This document shows positions 1 through 62,667 of a stretch of 64,000 nt of DNA, in pieces (position 1 is the first letter of the stretch; each line of letters opens with the position of its first letter). Source of the stretch: Thysanoteuthis rhombus. Taxonomy: Eukaryota; Mollusca; Cephalopoda; Oegopsida; Thysanoteuthidae. Location of the stretch: positions 7,371,797 through 7,435,796 of the forward strand of contig OY735237.1 in NCBI GenBank assembly GCA_963457665.1. The letters run 5' to 3'. Under the pieces are notes generated by a model. That model saw nothing but the letters and a program-made list of their open reading frames with translations, was not told the origin of the DNA and ran no database searches. The position numbers were made by a program, and so were the translations under genes.

Positions 1-878
1 ACACGTGGCACATTAACCGACGTATAGAGTTTTCAGTTATTGATGAGACAGTCCTATGATGTTGTCTTCTGTTATTCATCGGTTATTTTAGAAATTCAAT
101 ACCACTGAATTCATTATGAAAAACATTCGAAAATCACTGCTATCAAAGTGATCACTGTAGACAGTGGCGATTAAGCTTGAATGACGTTTTAGCAGGTACT
201 AGAGTCTTGTCGAACAAAATATATATTTTATCGGTGAAGGGAGTGACGCCTCTTTGGGGCTTATGGCCTTTAAGTCTAATTTCATTTATCACCCATCGCC
301 AGCACTCGAAAATCCTTCAGAACAGCAACATTTAATATCTGAAGACTGACATCAATAGCAAAACAATTACTCGCCAAATATATGGTCATATAATACTTTG
401 ACATCAGCTTCCAAGGAACTAAGATCGTTAAAATGGAGACGCTAATGTAAACGGACATATACTACTTTGTTCCCTTATTCAAAGATTCAGGATTAATTTA
501 GATAAAACGACAATCATTTCCAAAAAAAAAAAAGAAAAAAAAAGAAAAAAAAAGATAAAAGAACTAGACTACAAAGGATCGGCTCCTCAATTCACAAAAA
601 GAAGTGGACCAAAATATCAATGAAAGCTGCCCAACAAACGATCAATCAAAAGGCAACGCACTGGAGGAAACAGATCAATTATATGTCCACCCGTTGGAGG
701 ACACGATGTGAAAACAATAGAAGAAACGCTTTACCATCAAATGCAGAGATATGAATGTCGTTATTGGGAAGAAAAACAAAGAAATCAAGGAAAGACGAAC
801 CGAAAACAAAGGTGCGTTGAAAAGACCGGCGGACAAGTTATGTGATGTGATGCCTCCGTAGGAATAGCTTTGTTGTAT
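1..878. other. Unassigned AT-rich sequence
   Basis: No gene, RNA or repeat also present elsewhere in the window was recognised. Adenine-rich runs lie near 521-557. The segment from about 640 to 878 precedes an AAT microsatellite and a LINE tail and could be older LINE sequence, but its translations gave no recognisable motif. Confidence 0.5.
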
Positions 879-12536: not shown

Positions 12537-12769
12537 TTACTGAGATAAAAAAAGCAACCAAAAACATCTAGATTTAGAAACACTGACCAAGAGACGTAAC
12601 TAACATTAATACAAGTGTTTATTCCCTTTTGCACTGTTTAGGCCAAATGATGCATTCACCGTGCAATAATGGGAAGCTATTTCAAATAGAGTGTCCAAGT
12701 AATATCACGCATTTATAGTTATTTCTGTTGTATTACACATCAATTTTTAAATATTAATCATGACATATA

Positions 12770-17126: not shown

Positions 17127-17340
17127 TACACACACACACACACACACTCAGGGTGAGGAACCAAAGAGCAGACAGCGGATACGATGGGGGTCAGGATATG
17201 AGGATTCACTCCCTTTCAAGTCTTGTTCATCTTCTCAACAGGTCAAACACGTACACACACACTCCCCACACGTACATAGATATACACATAAAAGCATGGG
17301 TACTCATAAAACACACATGCATACATGCACACTCACACAT
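17127..17340. repeat. (CA)n-rich stretch
   Basis: CA arrays at 17129-17148 and 17250-17262 with interspersed ACAT and ACTC repeats. It precedes the fold-back element at 17341. Confidence 0.85.
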
Positions 17341-17625
17341 ATTGAGAAATGGATGTATATGATCCGACAGAATGATTATAAACTGCGTTATATAATATAG
17401 AAACTTATTTGAAATGATCTCCCGTCATTACAATGTTAATGTATCATTCGCCCTAGACAACGTGAAGAAAATTAAAGAGCTTCACTTCATCGGAGCGGCT
17501 ACCCTATCGGTTGCTGGTTCTATACCCGTAACAGCCCTATTTTCTTTGATTGTTTATATATTTATGTTGTCTAAAGCGAGTGATACATCAACTGTGTAAT
17601 GACGGGAGATCATTTCAAATTTATA

Positions 17626-17626
<1 letters not shown>
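17341..17626 (+). mobile_element. Fold-back element FB with tRNA-like core, copy 1
   Basis: The left arm TTTGAAATGATCTCCCGTCA (17408) continues through a GTATCATTCGCCCTAGACAACG phrase. Its reverse complement ends the element: ATGTTGTCTAAAGCGAGTGA (17563) to TGACGGGAGATCATTTCAAA (17599-17618). The arms pair over about 90 bp. Between them the core reads GCGGCTACCCTATCGGTTGC, then a B-box-like GGTTCTATACC. The outer left flank (AGAAATGGATGTATATGATC) is shared with copy 2, and the right flank is a TA array. No open frame. Confidence 0.8.

Positions 17627-17669
<43 letters not shown>
17627..17669. repeat. (TA)n microsatellite beside FB copy 1
   Basis: About 20 TA units begin a few bases after the right inverted repeat of the fold-back element. 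Confidence 0.95.
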
Positions 17670-17671
<2 letters not shown>

Positions 17672-17674
17672 AAA

Positions 17675-18066
17675 GCGTTTCTGGCTGGCTGACCATGTAT
17701 ACATCGAACGTGCAGACCACGCCTATTGAATCAGATCGCTGATAATCTAAACAATTACTCATGTCAGGAGGAAATTTTTTTACAGCCTTTTCCAAAATCC
17801 AACCCGAAATTGAAAAATAAGTTCTTACCGAGAGGTCCAATTTACAATGTAAGTTTATACTAAATTGGTGCGTCAGTTTGTGTCTTGTTGCATTCATACT
17901 TATCTAAAAATATAAACTTTCCTTCAGAGTTCGCAGCCCGGCAAAAGGCGAGAGAAGTAAATTATTCATTGATCACCCTTTGGTCTAATTTTTGATTGAT
18001 CACTCCTAACCCGGCATGTCGCCCAAGGACGATGGTCACATGAGAGTTTTTATTGGGTGAGTAACT
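17675..18066 (-). repeat. Family A interspersed repeat, copy 7
   Basis: Reverse orientation: TCTGGCTGGCTGACCATGTA near 17679, GTGCGTCAGTTTGTGTCTTG near 17869, ATTCATTGATCACCC at 17964, and the end GAGAGTTTTTATTGGGTGAG near 18044-18062. Confidence 0.8.
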
Positions 18067-18207
18067 GGATTTGCTTTTGGAAACGTCTTGACGGATTCCT
18101 GGATACGTCTGATCAAAGAGTAGTGAAGAGTTTTTGTGTACATTATACATAGAGCTATGAAAAAGTAAAAAGAAACAAACTTCATCTGTCTTCAGCTTTT
18201 ATTGAAT

Positions 18208-18575
18208 GTTACTTCAGTTTTTAAGTAGGTCTGGCTGTCTGGCTATCTTCTTCTCCACTGTCCTCTCCTTTCCCCTTTCCCTCTATATACACACACATAT
18301 ATGTGTGTGTATCTTTTGGACGCACCAATTTAGCTAGAGGGCTGAAATTTCAAACACTTACTCCTTATTTTGTCTAGAAAAAACACATTTTATTGTTTAG
18401 TTATTGAGATTTCCCTCTCCCAAAAGTTTTCGGAGAGAGTTCAATTTACAACTTAAGTGTATGCTAGATTGGTCCCTCAGTTTGAGTCCGAATACTTTCA
18501 CACTTGTTTTACGAAAATTTTGATCTCTGATCCAACAAAAAGCAAGAGAAGTATCTTTTTCATTGATCACCCCAA
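18208..18575 (-). repeat. Family A interspersed repeat, copy 8, with a perfect palindrome
   Basis: A second reverse copy 140 bp after copy 7, ending early within the CATTGATCACCCC phrase. Where other copies carry TACATACATA, this one holds a 26 bp perfect palindrome at 18287-18312 (ATACACACACAT paired with ATGTGTGTGTAT). Confidence 0.75.
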
Positions 18576-18890
18576 TGCATGTCTTTAGAAAAATCCAAGA
18601 AGACAGACTCTATTAAAAACATTCGACGATGTTTATGCAATTTTTATCTACATTTGGCAACATTTGTTTCTGTAGTGAAAAAGTTTTAATTTCTAATTAG
18701 GTTTTCAAGCAAAATAAACGAAGAATATCGTCCAAAATGAAACATAATTCATATAAGTATATATGTGAAGTGTACAGGTTAGTTACAAACACTGTATATT
18801 CTGCTTTTTTTTTCTTTCTCTTCCTTTATCATACTTTTTTTATCTCGAGAATTTTTTAGTGAGATAACAGCTTTCTTTACTGTTAGGAAC
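18576..18890. other. Unassigned AT-rich sequence
   Basis: No recognisable feature. Confidence 0.4.
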
Positions 18891-18891
18891 G

Positions 18892-18937
<46 letters not shown>
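18891..18937. repeat. (CT)n microsatellite
   Basis: About 20 CT units. Confidence 0.95.
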
Positions 18938-18939
<2 letters not shown>

Positions 18940-18964
18940 CCCTCTCTCTTTGAAAACTCTCTCT

Positions 18965-19298
18965 TCATCATCTGTTTTTTATCGTCCATCGTTGGACATA
19001 GACCTTCCCTAGGATTCGCCACATCTCTCAATCATGGGCATTGCAGAGCCAATATCTTCTGAACCTATCCGGTCTGTTTTGCTATCTCATATTCTGCTGG
19101 TCTTGGTTCCACACTTGATCCTTGGGGATCCATGTGACGTGTCTCGATGACCATCGATTGTGTGCTATTTTTGCAATATGACCAGCCTATTGCCATTTGC
19201 GTTTCGGAATTCAGTTTTTCCCCCCTAATATACTTTGCTGTTTTGTGGTCTGTCCATGTGATGTTGAGCATGATTCACTCATGTACACGTTTGGGTCG
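18965..19298 (-). mobile_element. RTE LINE 3' end, copy 6
   Basis: Minus orientation: short TCATCATC tail, then CATCGTTGGACATAGACCTT at 18988. The frame 19065-19271 reads MLNITWTDHKTAKYIRGEK, the conserved RTE phrase. Truncated just beyond it. Confidence 0.85.
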
Positions 19299-20460
19299 CT
19301 TAATTCATCACAAACGCTGTTAACCAATTTGAATTCAGTCTTGAGAATATTTTTTTTGCCATTCATAAAACTGCAGACTTACATCGAAGTTGAAAGGTAG
19401 AGGAACTTTCAAATAAATGCATAACGATTATTTAGTGCAGGAAATTCGGTAAAGTGTACGTATGCTTTCCTGGTCTGTTACAGCTGCAATCTTCAAATCA
19501 TGTATTTTTACGAATAAGTGGTTCCTTTTATAATTGGTGCTGCCGCTGCTCCGTTTGGGTGATTCTATTCTGAAGCTTAATTAATCGGTATCGAAAACCT
19601 ACCTTATTGCTCTGTTGCACCCATTGAACCTGAAGTCAAGCATCTTGTTCGGGCATTTCTTGTTCTATCGACCTCATTTCAATGGACCGATTGGCGCCAA
19701 AATCTCTGACTGACTGCCAATTCGTCGGTTCAAGGTTACATGAAAGAATTTGATCGTATGGATTTTTTCTCCAGACTAATACTACATATATATAATTTGA
19801 AACTTTGTACGCTAAAAAAAGAATTTTCTTTTATAAATTTCATCAATTTTGTACGGTCCCCAATCATTTCTTGACGTAATGCAAATCAGTTATTTTCTTA
19901 ACGCTGTTAACGTACTGCGTTTAGAGTTTTCTGTATTTTATGATTCTTCACTGATTATTGCAATTCAAAATTTGATCTTGATGTCATACGCTTGATTTTG
20001 TTGTGGGGATCATCAGATGTCTTACCATGGAAGTGTTTCAGGATTTCGAAAAACACAAAAACAAAAAAAAAAACGAACAAAAACGGTTCAGACATTTTTA
20101 CCATGACATTCTCTATCTGTGCTGATCAAACACACCCTCCGTGCATGAATGTTACTTAAATATTTATAGATTTTGTTTCATTTCAATTTTCTTTTTTTTT
20201 GTCATTTCCATTGATAAGTTATTTTATTTTATTATTTAGACCAAGTGTATTGTTGTATTATATGCTGAATGTATATTGTTTACAGTGTCGATTAGATATC
20301 ATGTTATTTGCAGTGCATTTTTCTGTTGTACAAGTAATCTGAATTTTCTAAAGATGGATTTAATTTCGTGGGTCAACTGATATTTAAATTGACCATTTAT
20401 AGATTAACATATAAACTCAATAGAAATGATTTTTCTTTACGTTTTGTTTTACTCTTACTT
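19299..20460. other. Unassigned AT-rich sequence
   Basis: About 1.1 kb without a recognisable gene, RNA or repeat shared within the window. T-rich and A-rich runs only. Confidence 0.4.
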
Positions 20461-20517
20461 ATCTCTCTCTCTCTCGTTACACACACATACACGCACACAC
20501 AAACATGTATGTATATG
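20461..20517. repeat. (CT)n then (CA)n microsatellite
   Basis: Short CT array followed by ACACACATACACGCACACAC. It directly precedes FB copy 2, as a CA-rich stretch precedes copy 1. Confidence 0.9.
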
Positions 20518-20818
20518 TTATTAGGAAATGGATATATGATCCGAACGAATGATTTTGAATTGCGTTATATTATATAGAAACTTTTTGAAATGATGTGTTT
20601 TCAAAAGATGAATATATCATTTGATCTAAACTGCGTAAATAGAATAAACAATTACAGAGAATGGGGCTACGAAGTTGAAGCGACTACCCTATCGGTCGCA
20701 GATTCGATTCTTGCTGCAGCCCCATTTACGTTGTCTAGGCCAAATTATATATTCACTGTATAATAACAGGGTAATAATTTCAAATAGAGTTTCAATATAA
20801 TATAACACAATTTATCAT

Positions 20819-20820
<2 letters not shown>
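20518..20820 (+). mobile_element. Fold-back element FB with tRNA-like core, copy 2 (most complete arms)
   Basis: The left arm runs from AATTGCGTTATATTATATAG (20558) to ATGGGGCT (20661-20668). The right arm, from AGCCCCATTTACG (20718) to TATAATATAACACAATTTAT (20796-20815), is its inverted complement over roughly 100 bp, with a 20 bp stretch (AGAATAAACAATTACAGAGA) missing from the right arm. The core between them is tRNA-like: GCGACTACCCTATCGGTCGC then the B box AGATTCGATTC. Outer left flank GAAATGGATATATGATCCGA is shared with copy 1. The right side enters a 190 bp TA tract. Confidence 0.85.
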
Positions 20821-20892
<72 letters not shown>

Positions 20893-31985: not shown

Positions 31986-32097
31986 ATATGTATTTTGTAT
32001 TATTAAGAAATGGAGAAATCTATGTATGCATAATGAAGACTAACGGGAGATCATTTCAAATAGAGTTTCGTGATAATATAACGGGTTTATCATTATC

Positions 32098-32150
<53 letters not shown>
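31986..32150. mobile_element. Fold-back element FB relic (internal deletion) and (TA)n
   Basis: The left flank ATTAAGAAATGGAGAAATCT is joined after a few bases to the right arm AACGGGAGATCATTTCAAAT and a GATAATATAACGGGTTTATC end, then TA repeats at 32100-32147. The core and left arm are lost. Confidence 0.65.
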
Positions 32151-32365: not shown

Positions 32366-32598
32366 TTTCTCTCTCTCTCTCTCTCTCTCTTGCGCTCTCT
32401 CTTTCTCTTTATACATATGTATTATCAAAAAATTGATATATGATCCAATGGAATGATATTTAATTAAGAAAGATACGCATATTCAACACTTATCAATGGA
32501 ATGACACACACACATACACACACACATATATATTTATACAGATATGTGTGTGTATGTTTTTGTGAGAAGAGTTTTAACATAATATAACGCAACTTATG

Positions 32599-32661
<63 letters not shown>
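32366..32661. mobile_element. Second FB relic among CT, CA and TA microsatellites
   Basis: After a CT array (32366-32412), ATTGATATATGATCCAATGG and AATGATATTT match the FB left flank. AGAGTTTTAACATAATATAA and CGCAACTTATGC near 32568-32597 match the right end, followed by TA repeats to 32661. Between them lies a CA-rich stretch with an imperfect CACACATATAT palindrome. Confidence 0.6.
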
Positions 32662-46987: not shown

Positions 46988-47130
46988 TATTTGAAATCCA
47001 CTAAGTTCCCGTAGCTCAGTGGTAAGAGCGTTCGCTCGTCAAGTGAACAACCTTCCGTCATAGAGGGTCATGTATTCAATTCTCACCTGAAGCTTATTCT
47101 CTATTTTACGCCGTTGGTATTGAATGGAAA
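46988..47130 (+). mobile_element. tRNA-derived SINE (SINE-3), copy 2
   Basis: CCCGTAGCTCAGTGGTAAGA (47007) is a canonical A box and D arm. A B-box-like TATTCAATTCTC follows about 55 bp later. The tail CTTATTCTCTATTTTACGCC matches the SINE-3 copy at 29516. Anticodon and acceptor stems do not pair, so it is not a working tRNA gene. Confidence 0.65.
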
Positions 47131-62474: not shown

Positions 62475-62645
62475 TACAACAAACGTAAATAGAATAAACA
62501 ATTAGAGAAAATTGGGCTGCTGCAGGAATCGAACCTGCCACCGATAGGGTAGCTGTTTCAATGTAGCAATGCTCTTACCATTGAGCTAAACAGCTGCTGG
62601 TAATGCAAAGGTTAAATATTGTCTAAATTCAATGATATATAAACC
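62475..62645 (-). mobile_element. Fold-back element FB, copy 3, with the full tRNA-like core
   Basis: One arm is AACGTAAATAGAATAAACAA then TTAGAGAAAATTGGGCTGC (62482-62521); the opposite arm survives as TTAAATATTGTCTAAATTCA (62611). Outer arms are lost. On the minus strand the core reads TTTAGCTCAATGGTAAGAGC (A box and D arm, 62592-62573) and GGCAGGTTCGATTCCTGC (T arm with B box, 62538-62521), about 35 bp apart, like a tRNA whose acceptor stem is not maintained. Confidence 0.75.
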
Positions 62646-62667
62646 GCGTGATCTGTTCACTTACCAC

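What the first reader, a model, noticed from the sequence alone, without database searches (positions are those of the whole stretch)
17341..20820. Fold-back element with roughly 100 bp inverted arms around a tRNA-like Pol III core (FB family)
Two copies 3 kb apart (17341-17626, 20518-20820) and a third at 62475-62645 share one plan: long inverted arms enclosing a tRNA-like A/B-box core. DNA-transposon MITEs have inverted arms and no Pol III promoter; SINEs have the promoter and no inverted arms. FB has both. The third copy keeps the complete core with a canonical A box, D arm and T arm. The arms can pair over most of their length in copies 1 and 2, with one arm having lost a 20 bp segment in copy 2. 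Seen in sequence: arms, core, shared outer flanks. Inference: a composite element, either a MITE that captured a SINE head or a SINE pair that became a palindrome.
Basis: partly seen in the sequence, partly recalled or inferred. Interest (0 to 1): 0.75.

Follow-up and report, generated by a model that had tools for sequence, protein, structure and literature searches.

The report
tRNA-headed repeat inserted Penelope-style
The fold-backs do not look like a hairpin element with a captured promoter: they look like pairs of a very abundant tRNA-headed mobile repeat, joined head to head by an insertion mechanism resembling that of Penelope retroelements, which would make it a new kind of short interspersed element.

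Summary
Copies 1 and 2 are real inverted structures and copy 3 holds a full tRNA-like sequence, but the plan is not "arms around a core". All belong to one 327-337 bp unit: leader, 83-nt tRNA-like head, body, 3' end. In 90 loci of the window's own 2.73-Gb genome, units closer than 60 bp are head-to-head 63 times, direct 30, tail-to-tail 4; farther neighbours show no such excess (5 and 9). Junctions nearly all differ, so the tRNA is complete in 18 of 63 pairs, broken in 34, absent in 11. Outer ends fall on two sites 35-36 bp apart, at the same place in three subfamilies. Of 28 pairs with both ends classified, 26 have one end of each kind. Tandem units, head-to-head copies, 5' truncation and an optional 30-40 bp "tail" on one inverted arm are the published marks of Penelope-like elements (PMC11167929, PMC3846280). 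Best reading: a non-autonomous, tRNA-headed Penelope-like element whose RNA is copied onto both broken target ends, so each fold-back is made at insertion. Not shown: autonomous partner, target-site duplication, hammerhead, Pol III transcription.

The parts
17340..17475 (-). Copy 1, left arm: unit positions 322 to 187 (subfamily A); outer end 4 positions short of the tail end (T)
   Evidence: blastn to consensus A, 92%
17475..17639 (+). Copy 1, right arm: unit 109 to 273 in the alignment; by eye about 24 bp are missing and the arm ends near the no-tail (N) site, then (TA)n; includes a 5'-truncated tRNA (no A box)
   Evidence: blastn to consensus A, 83%; the rest by eye
20514..20668 (-). Copy 2, left arm: unit 336 to 178 (subfamily B); ends exactly at the tail (T) site
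   Evidence: (85%)
20674..20821 (+). Copy 2, right arm: unit 134 to 301 (subfamily B); ends exactly at the no-tail (N) site, then (TA)n; about 20 bp deleted after the tRNA remnant (by eye)
   Evidence: (77%)
62482..62618 (-). Copy 3, main piece: unit 202 to 66 (subfamily C) with complete tRNA-like head
   Evidence: 96%; ARAGORN; Rfam
62514..62595 (-). tRNA-like sequence (called tRNA-Asn, att) in copy 3
62619..62649 (+). Copy 3, short second piece: unit 201 to 231, head to head with the main piece
   Evidence: 87%
12613..12753 (+). Single 5'-truncated unit (subfamily B, 193 to 331)
   Evidence: 77%
32001..32130 (.). Degraded head-to-head pair: minus piece (C 260-322) and plus piece from unit about 237 running into (TA)n; the two alignments overlap
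   Evidence: 68% and 76%
32422..32636 (.). Degraded head-to-head pair: minus piece B 256-332 and plus piece A 257 onward, 65 bp apart with a (CA)n stretch between; right end in (TA)n
   Evidence: 71% and 70%

Best explanation
A non-autonomous retroelement with a tRNA-derived head, inserted in the manner of Penelope-like elements (PLEs). Inferred mechanism: a transcript spanning one or more tandem units is bound near its 3' end by a PLE-type reverse transcriptase/endonuclease, probably a dimer. Reverse transcription starts inside the RNA at two fixed sites that flank a 35-36 nt tail with a small hairpin, and runs a variable distance toward the 5' end (5' truncation). Both strands of the broken, often (TA)n-rich target serve as primers, one cDNA starting at the tail site (T) and the other at the no-tail site (N). 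The two cDNAs grow toward each other and are joined head to head, sometimes with a template jump that leaves filler. Each fold-back is therefore a by-product of one insertion, with its own junction, and not an element copied as a hairpin. Shown here: the unit, the tandem order, the head-to-head excess, two exact 3' ends, the one-N-one-T rule, variable junctions, a tRNA-like head in all three consensuses. Inferred: the PLE machinery, priming from both strands, a dimeric enzyme, Pol III transcription of source copies.
For: Neighbours within 60 bp in 90 loci: 63 head-to-head, 30 direct, 4 tail-to-tail; in the 30 loci found with the tRNA-rich copy 3 as query 18: 12: 1 (18 against 1, p = 8e-5). Neighbours farther apart serve as control: 5 head-to-head, 9 tail-to-tail, 7 direct (near against far p = 4e-6). 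Two exact 3' ends: N in 52, T in 75, reading through into a next tandem unit in 31, other 40 (8 of them between N and T) of 198 fragments, at homologous positions in subfamilies A, B, C. Strict end classes of the 63 pairs: N+T 26, T+T 1, N+N 1; the other 35 have an arm that reads on into another unit or ends elsewhere; 26 of 28, p = 3e-6. 21 of 30 direct joints run from unit 318-327 to 1-9. All 31 fragments that reach the unit start are preceded by at least 15 bp alignable to a unit 3' end (in L072 this is mostly (TA)n and doubtful). Junction coordinates differ in nearly all pairs. Both arms of one subfamily in 51 of 57 pairs. PLE literature: tandem pLTRs, an inverted pLTR, head-to-head the most frequent inverted arrangement, a 31-bp tail optionally at one of the inverted pLTRs (PMC3846280, passages); an anole PLE protein cleaves and extends both DNA strands, starts at two adjacent internal sites whose interval is the tail, prefers AT-rich DNA and is modelled as a dimer (PMC11167929, parts 1-2 of 4). 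PLE-type GIY-YIG frames are numerous in this genome (150 matches listed, 2439 first-look candidates). (TA)4 lies within 8 bp of 27 of 75 T ends and 24 of 54 N ends, against 2.1% of 13,736 background positions.
Against: No autonomous partner found: three PLE 3' regions (L092-L094) share nothing significant with the unit apart from unit copies lying upstream of the endonuclease in L092. No target-site duplication shown: 3 of 49 pairs, control 3; 14 pairs without simple-sequence flanks, p = 0.097. No hammerhead, which PLEs usually carry (Rfam at E up to 10 on 5 loci; core-motif search of three consensuses). Junction overlap does not exceed artificial junctions (p = 0.51). The anole enzyme in vitro showed no difference in start site between top and bottom strands, so the one-N-one-T rule is not directly predicted by it. 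Two of three sets of loci were fetched with fold-back queries. (TA)n could have grown from the element's own ends after insertion. Copies are about 11-13% from consensus (medians), which blurs ends.
Confidence: 0.75

Rival explanations
1. Ordinary tRNA-derived SINE mobilised by a LINE; the fold-backs are independent insertions beside each other or later rearrangements.
For: tRNA-like head in all three consensuses; fixed 3' ends and frequent microsatellite next to them.
Against: Independent neighbours should be tail-to-tail as often as head-to-head; they are at more than 60 bp (9 and 5) but not within 60 bp (4 and 63). Two exact 3' ends with one of each per pair (26 of 28), frequent 5' truncation and tandem units are not usual for LINE-driven SINEs (general knowledge).
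Confidence: 0.12
2. MITE-like DNA transposon with long terminal inverted repeats that captured a tRNA or SINE head; the variable centre comes from deletions in the palindrome.
For: Copies 1 and 2 look like long inverted repeats; outer ends are sharp.
Against: Two different ends in 26 of 28 classified pairs, direct tandems with a constant end-to-start joint and single 5'-truncated units, junctions nearly all different. A TA duplication cannot be excluded in (TA)n flanks.
Confidence: 0.05
3. PLE-type element as in the best explanation, but the second arm is made by self-priming (the cDNA or an antisense template folds back), as proposed for rotifer Penelope in PMC3846280.
For: That paper proposes self-priming for inverted repeats with palindromic junctions (passages). 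In subfamily A the two arms share somewhat more non-consensus bases than arms of different loci (2.58% against 1.46%); less so in B (1.67, 1.44) and C (1.31, 0.98).
Against: A simple snap-back copy should end where the first arm ends, but 26 of 28 classified pairs have one tail and one no-tail arm; 6 of 57 pairs mix subfamilies; no excess overlap at junctions.
Confidence: 0.14
4. LTR-type TRIM with a tRNA in its LTR (Helenus): the unit is a solo or tandem LTR.
For: Helenus has tRNA-like sequence in its LTRs, occurs in animals, and tandem arrays are reported for LTR-11_DR (PMC10886601, passages).
Against: 21 of 30 direct joints within 60 bp are end-to-start with no room for an internal region; inverted pairs, two 3' ends and 5' truncation do not fit LTR integration. 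Seven direct neighbours more than 60 bp apart were not examined for a primer-binding site.
Confidence: 0.02

Closest known systems
Penelope-like elements (Penelope/Poseidon clade, endonuclease-containing)
   Same: Direct tandem or partial-tandem repeats, head-to-head inverted copy, optional 30-40 bp tail on one inverted arm, 5' truncation, AT-rich sites (PMC3846280 passages; PMC11167929 parts 1-2)
   Different: No coding region seen in the unit, a tRNA-like head in the repeat, no hammerhead detected, no sequence shared with the three PLE 3' regions looked at
tRNA-derived SINEs
   Same: Short, numerous, tRNA-like head with A and B boxes
   Different: Head-to-head and tandem organisation, two fixed 3' ends, frequent 5' truncation; no LINE partner was sought or found
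Metazoan retrozymes
   Same: Short non-coding units of a few hundred bp in tandem (PMC7761336, passages)
   Different: No hammerhead found; a tRNA-like sequence is present
Cassandra / Helenus / Ajax (TRIMs with Pol III-type genes in their LTRs)
   Same: Small-RNA-gene sequence inside the repeated end of a non-autonomous retroelement (PMC10886601, passages)
   Different: Those are LTR elements; this one shows PLE-like ends

Membership tests
Penelope-like elements | Direct tandem or partial-tandem repeats (pLTRs) | tested here: met
   30 direct joints within 60 bp, 21 of them 318-327 to 1-9; unit start preceded by a unit end in 31 of 31 fragments, one doubtful
Penelope-like elements | Inverted copy, head-to-head | tested here: met
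   63 head-to-head against 4 tail-to-tail within 60 bp, 5 against 9 beyond. Ten clusters not chosen by a query: 5 head-to-head (gaps up to 65 bp) and 1 possible tail-to-tail (L008, a 24-bp piece 75 bp away)
Penelope-like elements | Optional 30-40 bp tail, at one of the inverted repeats | tested here: met
   52 N and 75 T ends of 198 fragments, 35-36 bp apart in three subfamilies; one of each in 26 of 28 classified pairs
Penelope-like elements | Frequent 5' truncation | tested here: met
   Wide spread of 5' starts over 208 fragments
Penelope-like elements | RT and GIY-YIG endonuclease, in the element or in a partner sharing cis sequence | tested here: inconclusive
   PLE-type GIY-YIG frames numerous, but only three 3' regions were examined and they share no end with the unit
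Penelope-like elements | Hammerhead motif in the pLTR | tested here: not met
   No match (5 loci, E up to 10, three consensuses). The element is therefore filed as working like a PLE, not as a proven member
Penelope-like elements | Target-site duplication of variable length | tested here: inconclusive
   3 of 49 against control 3; n = 14, p = 0.097
tRNA-derived SINE | tRNA-like head with Pol III A and B boxes | tested here: met
   ARAGORN tRNA in all three consensuses; Rfam tRNA in copy 3. Box consensus recalled
tRNA-derived SINE | 3' end shared with a LINE partner | not tested
   No LINE 3' end was compared
tRNA-derived SINE | Transcribed by Pol III | not testable with these tools
   No expression data; TTTT follows the tRNA closely in all three consensuses
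MITE / fold-back DNA transposon | Fixed terminal inverted repeats and constant internal sequence | tested here: not met
   Unlike ends in 26 of 28 pairs, junctions nearly all different
MITE / fold-back DNA transposon | Fixed-length target-site duplication | tested here: inconclusive
   (TA)n flanks hide a TA duplication; no other duplication above control
Retrozyme | Hammerhead ribozyme | tested here: not met
Helenus / TRIMp3 | Two LTRs with PBS and PPT between them | tested here: inconclusive
   21 of 30 close direct joints are end-to-start; seven wider direct neighbours were not examined for PBS or PPT

The most novel reading that the evidence does not exclude
A SINE-like parasite of Penelope-like elements: a tRNA-headed, non-coding element with on the order of 100,000 insertion clusters that uses the third class of retroelement machinery. 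Its head-to-head inserts follow a one-tail rule (26 of 28), as if a dimeric enzyme on one RNA starts at the tail site for one DNA strand and at the no-tail site for the other. The tRNA may also stand in for the hammerhead of PLEs and retrozymes, with RNase P and RNase Z cutting multimeric transcripts into units.
Probability: 0.45. Interest if true: 0.8.

Novelty: new variant of a known kind. Interest (0 to 1): 0.64.

Why it matters
SINEs are taken to depend on LINEs, and small-RNA-gene heads are also reported in miniature LTR elements. A tRNA-headed element with PLE-type ends would add the third retroelement class to that list. It also offers many independent natural insertions from which the poorly understood PLE integration steps (two start sites, priming on both strands, joining of two cDNAs) can be read; the one-tail rule already says that the two start sites are used as a pair. 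And it warns that fold-back repeats in such genomes may be insertion products and not MITEs.

Tried and rejected
Hammerhead/retrozyme: no motif. Junction microhomology: not above artificial junctions. Target-site duplication: not shown. Partner search: Pfam GIY-YIG (7 matches; L091 looks like the host SLX1 gene, by recall), then a PLE-type endonuclease stretch from L092; L092-L094 gave no shared end. A preference for breakpoints near 100 and 185 in the first set: dropped as an effect of the query's own junction. RNase P/Z processing: no clear 5'-end peak at the tRNA borders. (arm-only query) could not be used to count architectures, because second arms known from earlier loci were not listed; a padded version did not complete. 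Because of that recount I raised the best explanation from 0.72 to 0.75 and lowered self-priming from 0.20 to 0.14 and the LINE-driven SINE from 0.14 to 0.12. Papers: PMC11167929 (parts 1 and 2 of 4, and passages), PMC3846280 (passages and section 9), PMC7761336, PMC10886601, PMC6685494, PMC13282606, PMC6962438 (passages only); all others only in listings. PMC8557442 is not held. That no tRNA-headed PLE was found in print rests on searches.
Full report
Where it is. The window is G000:C42:7371797-7435796, strand +, of a 2.73-Gb assembly in 514 contigs.

What is in the window. Copies 1 and 2 are inverted structures and copy 3 holds a complete tRNA-like sequence. Against consensuses built here, copy 1 is unit 322-187 (minus) joined to 109 onward (plus); copy 2 is 336-178 (minus) joined to 134-301 (plus); copy 3 is 202-66 (minus) joined to 201-231 (plus). 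So copies 1 and 2 have lost the A box, and copy 3 has practically no inverted arms. Twenty letter-shuffled consensuses gave no hits in the window.

The unit. Three searches of the own genome gave 9349, 5294 and 4477 first-look candidates, 40 scored each; 30 loci were fetched from each, 90 in all, three of which are the window's own copies. The unit is 327 bp (subfamilies A and C) or 337 bp (B): a leader of about 89 bp (about 100 bp in B), an 83-nt tRNA-like head with a long variable arm and an Asn-type anticodon (ARAGORN, all three consensuses), a 35-bp spacer without a difference between subfamilies, a body and a tail. Between subfamilies the head differs at 1-5 of 83 positions and the leader at 9-26 of 100 aligned columns, insertions counted. 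Copies are 87-89% identical to their consensus (medians). Seven clusters lay by chance in 176 kb of flanks, one per 25 kb, which extrapolates to roughly 100,000 in the genome, with a wide margin.

Architecture. Units within 60 bp of each other are head-to-head 63 times, direct 30, tail-to-tail 4; 20 of 90 loci have no such pair. Because the queries of the first two sets are fold-backs, the third set is the better guide: 18, 12 and 1. Neighbours more than 60 bp apart serve as a control and show no head-to-head excess: 5 head-to-head, 9 tail-to-tail, 7 direct (near against far, Fisher p = 4e-6). Ten clusters not chosen by any query (seven in flanks, three in the window) include five head-to-head pairs, one of them with a 65-bp gap, and one possible tail-to-tail (L008, a 24-bp piece 75 bp away) (my reading of the table). 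Of the 30 direct joints 21 run from unit 318-327 to 1-9, and all 31 fragments that reach the unit start have at least 15 bp alignable to a unit end before them, though in L072 this is mostly (TA)n.

Two exact 3' ends. With strict alignment, 198 fragments of 70 bp or more end at the N site (52), at the T site (75), read on into a following unit (31) or end elsewhere (40, of which 8 between N and T). N falls directly after TTTATAAT(T)CAT and T after ACATA in all three subfamilies, 35-36 bp apart. The tail holds a short hairpin whose one variable pair changes on both sides between A/B and C (GGAU-AUCC to GGAC-GUCC; consensuses; one event only, so weak support for the structure).

One of each. In the 63 head-to-head pairs the strict end classes are N+T 26, T+T 1, N+N 1; the remaining 35 have at least one arm that reads into a further unit (19) or ends elsewhere (16 more). 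Of the 28 pairs with both ends classified, 26 have one end of each kind (p = 3e-6 against free choice; 25 of 27 without the window's copy 2). A looser first count (25 N+T, 19 T+T) had let arms run through (TA)n and is withdrawn. The N arm is the longer one in 17 and the T arm in 9 of the 26.

Junctions. Breakpoints of the 63 pairs are nearly all different. Four coordinate pairs recur or nearly recur (97/193, 132/157, 140/170, 155-156/182), mostly with different joint sequences, so most pairs arose independently. Some joints carry filler that by eye derives from other parts of the unit (L002, L032), like template jumps. Overlap at joints is not above artificial joints (p = 0.51). A complete tRNA is present in at least one arm in 18 of 63, a broken one in 34, none in 11.

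Mechanism. In print, typical Penelope copies have direct pLTRs plus an inverted pLTR, most often head-to-head, and a 31-bp tail optionally at one of the inverted pLTRs (PMC3846280, passages). An anole PLE protein cuts and extends both strands, prefers AT-rich DNA, is modelled as a dimer and starts reverse transcription at two internal sites whose interval is the tail, 30-40 bp long (PMC11167929, parts 1-2). The anatomical marks found here match. I therefore infer insertion by PLE-type machinery, two cDNAs primed on the two broken strands being joined head to head. The one-of-each rule argues against a simple snap-back copy and against independent choice of start site on the two strands; a dimer using one start site per strand would explain it, although in vitro the anole enzyme showed no difference in start site between strands. 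A common subfamily in 51 of 57 pairs fits templates from one source family. (TA)4 lies within 8 bp of 27 of 75 T ends and 24 of 54 N ends, against 2.1% of 13,736 background positions: a target preference or later growth of a microsatellite.

What is missing. No autonomous partner: PLE-type GIY-YIG frames are numerous, but the three 3' regions that could be fetched (L092-L094) share no end with the unit. No target duplication. No hammerhead. No expression data. TTTT follows the tRNA closely in all three consensuses, so Pol III might stop there; a multimeric template would then need read-through or Pol II.

Verdict. The element works like a non-autonomous Penelope-like element; membership is not proven, since no partner was found and the usual hammerhead is absent. 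A tRNA-headed PLE was not found in six literature searches, which cover only the openly licensed library.

Noticed in passing
window 47004-47095: A second tRNA-like sequence (ARAGORN tRNA-Asp, gtc, 92 nt) on the plus strand, not listed by Rfam at the gathering score; not part of the unit described here, perhaps another tRNA-derived repeat or a pseudogene.
   Followed up: partly
L092 (G000:C35:24967800-24971800), minus strand about 1305-999: A PLE-type GIY-YIG endonuclease stretch of 102 residues without stops; relatives are numerous in this genome (150 matches listed). Unit pieces in head-to-head order lie about 150 bp upstream of it.
   Followed up: partly
L092, reverse strand about 1350-1825: A repeat of about 450 bp, pieces of which match at least ten of the fetched loci; an open frame beside it looks like the C-terminal end of an RTE-type LINE (by recall).
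   Followed up: no
unit positions 173-207, all subfamilies: A 35-bp spacer directly after the tRNA is identical in the three subfamily consensuses, more conserved than the tRNA itself; its role is unknown.
   Followed up: no
L010, L014, L025: A few arms end near unit 199-205, short of both 3' ends (7 fragments in the 198-206 bins); possibly a third start site or later truncation.
   Followed up: no
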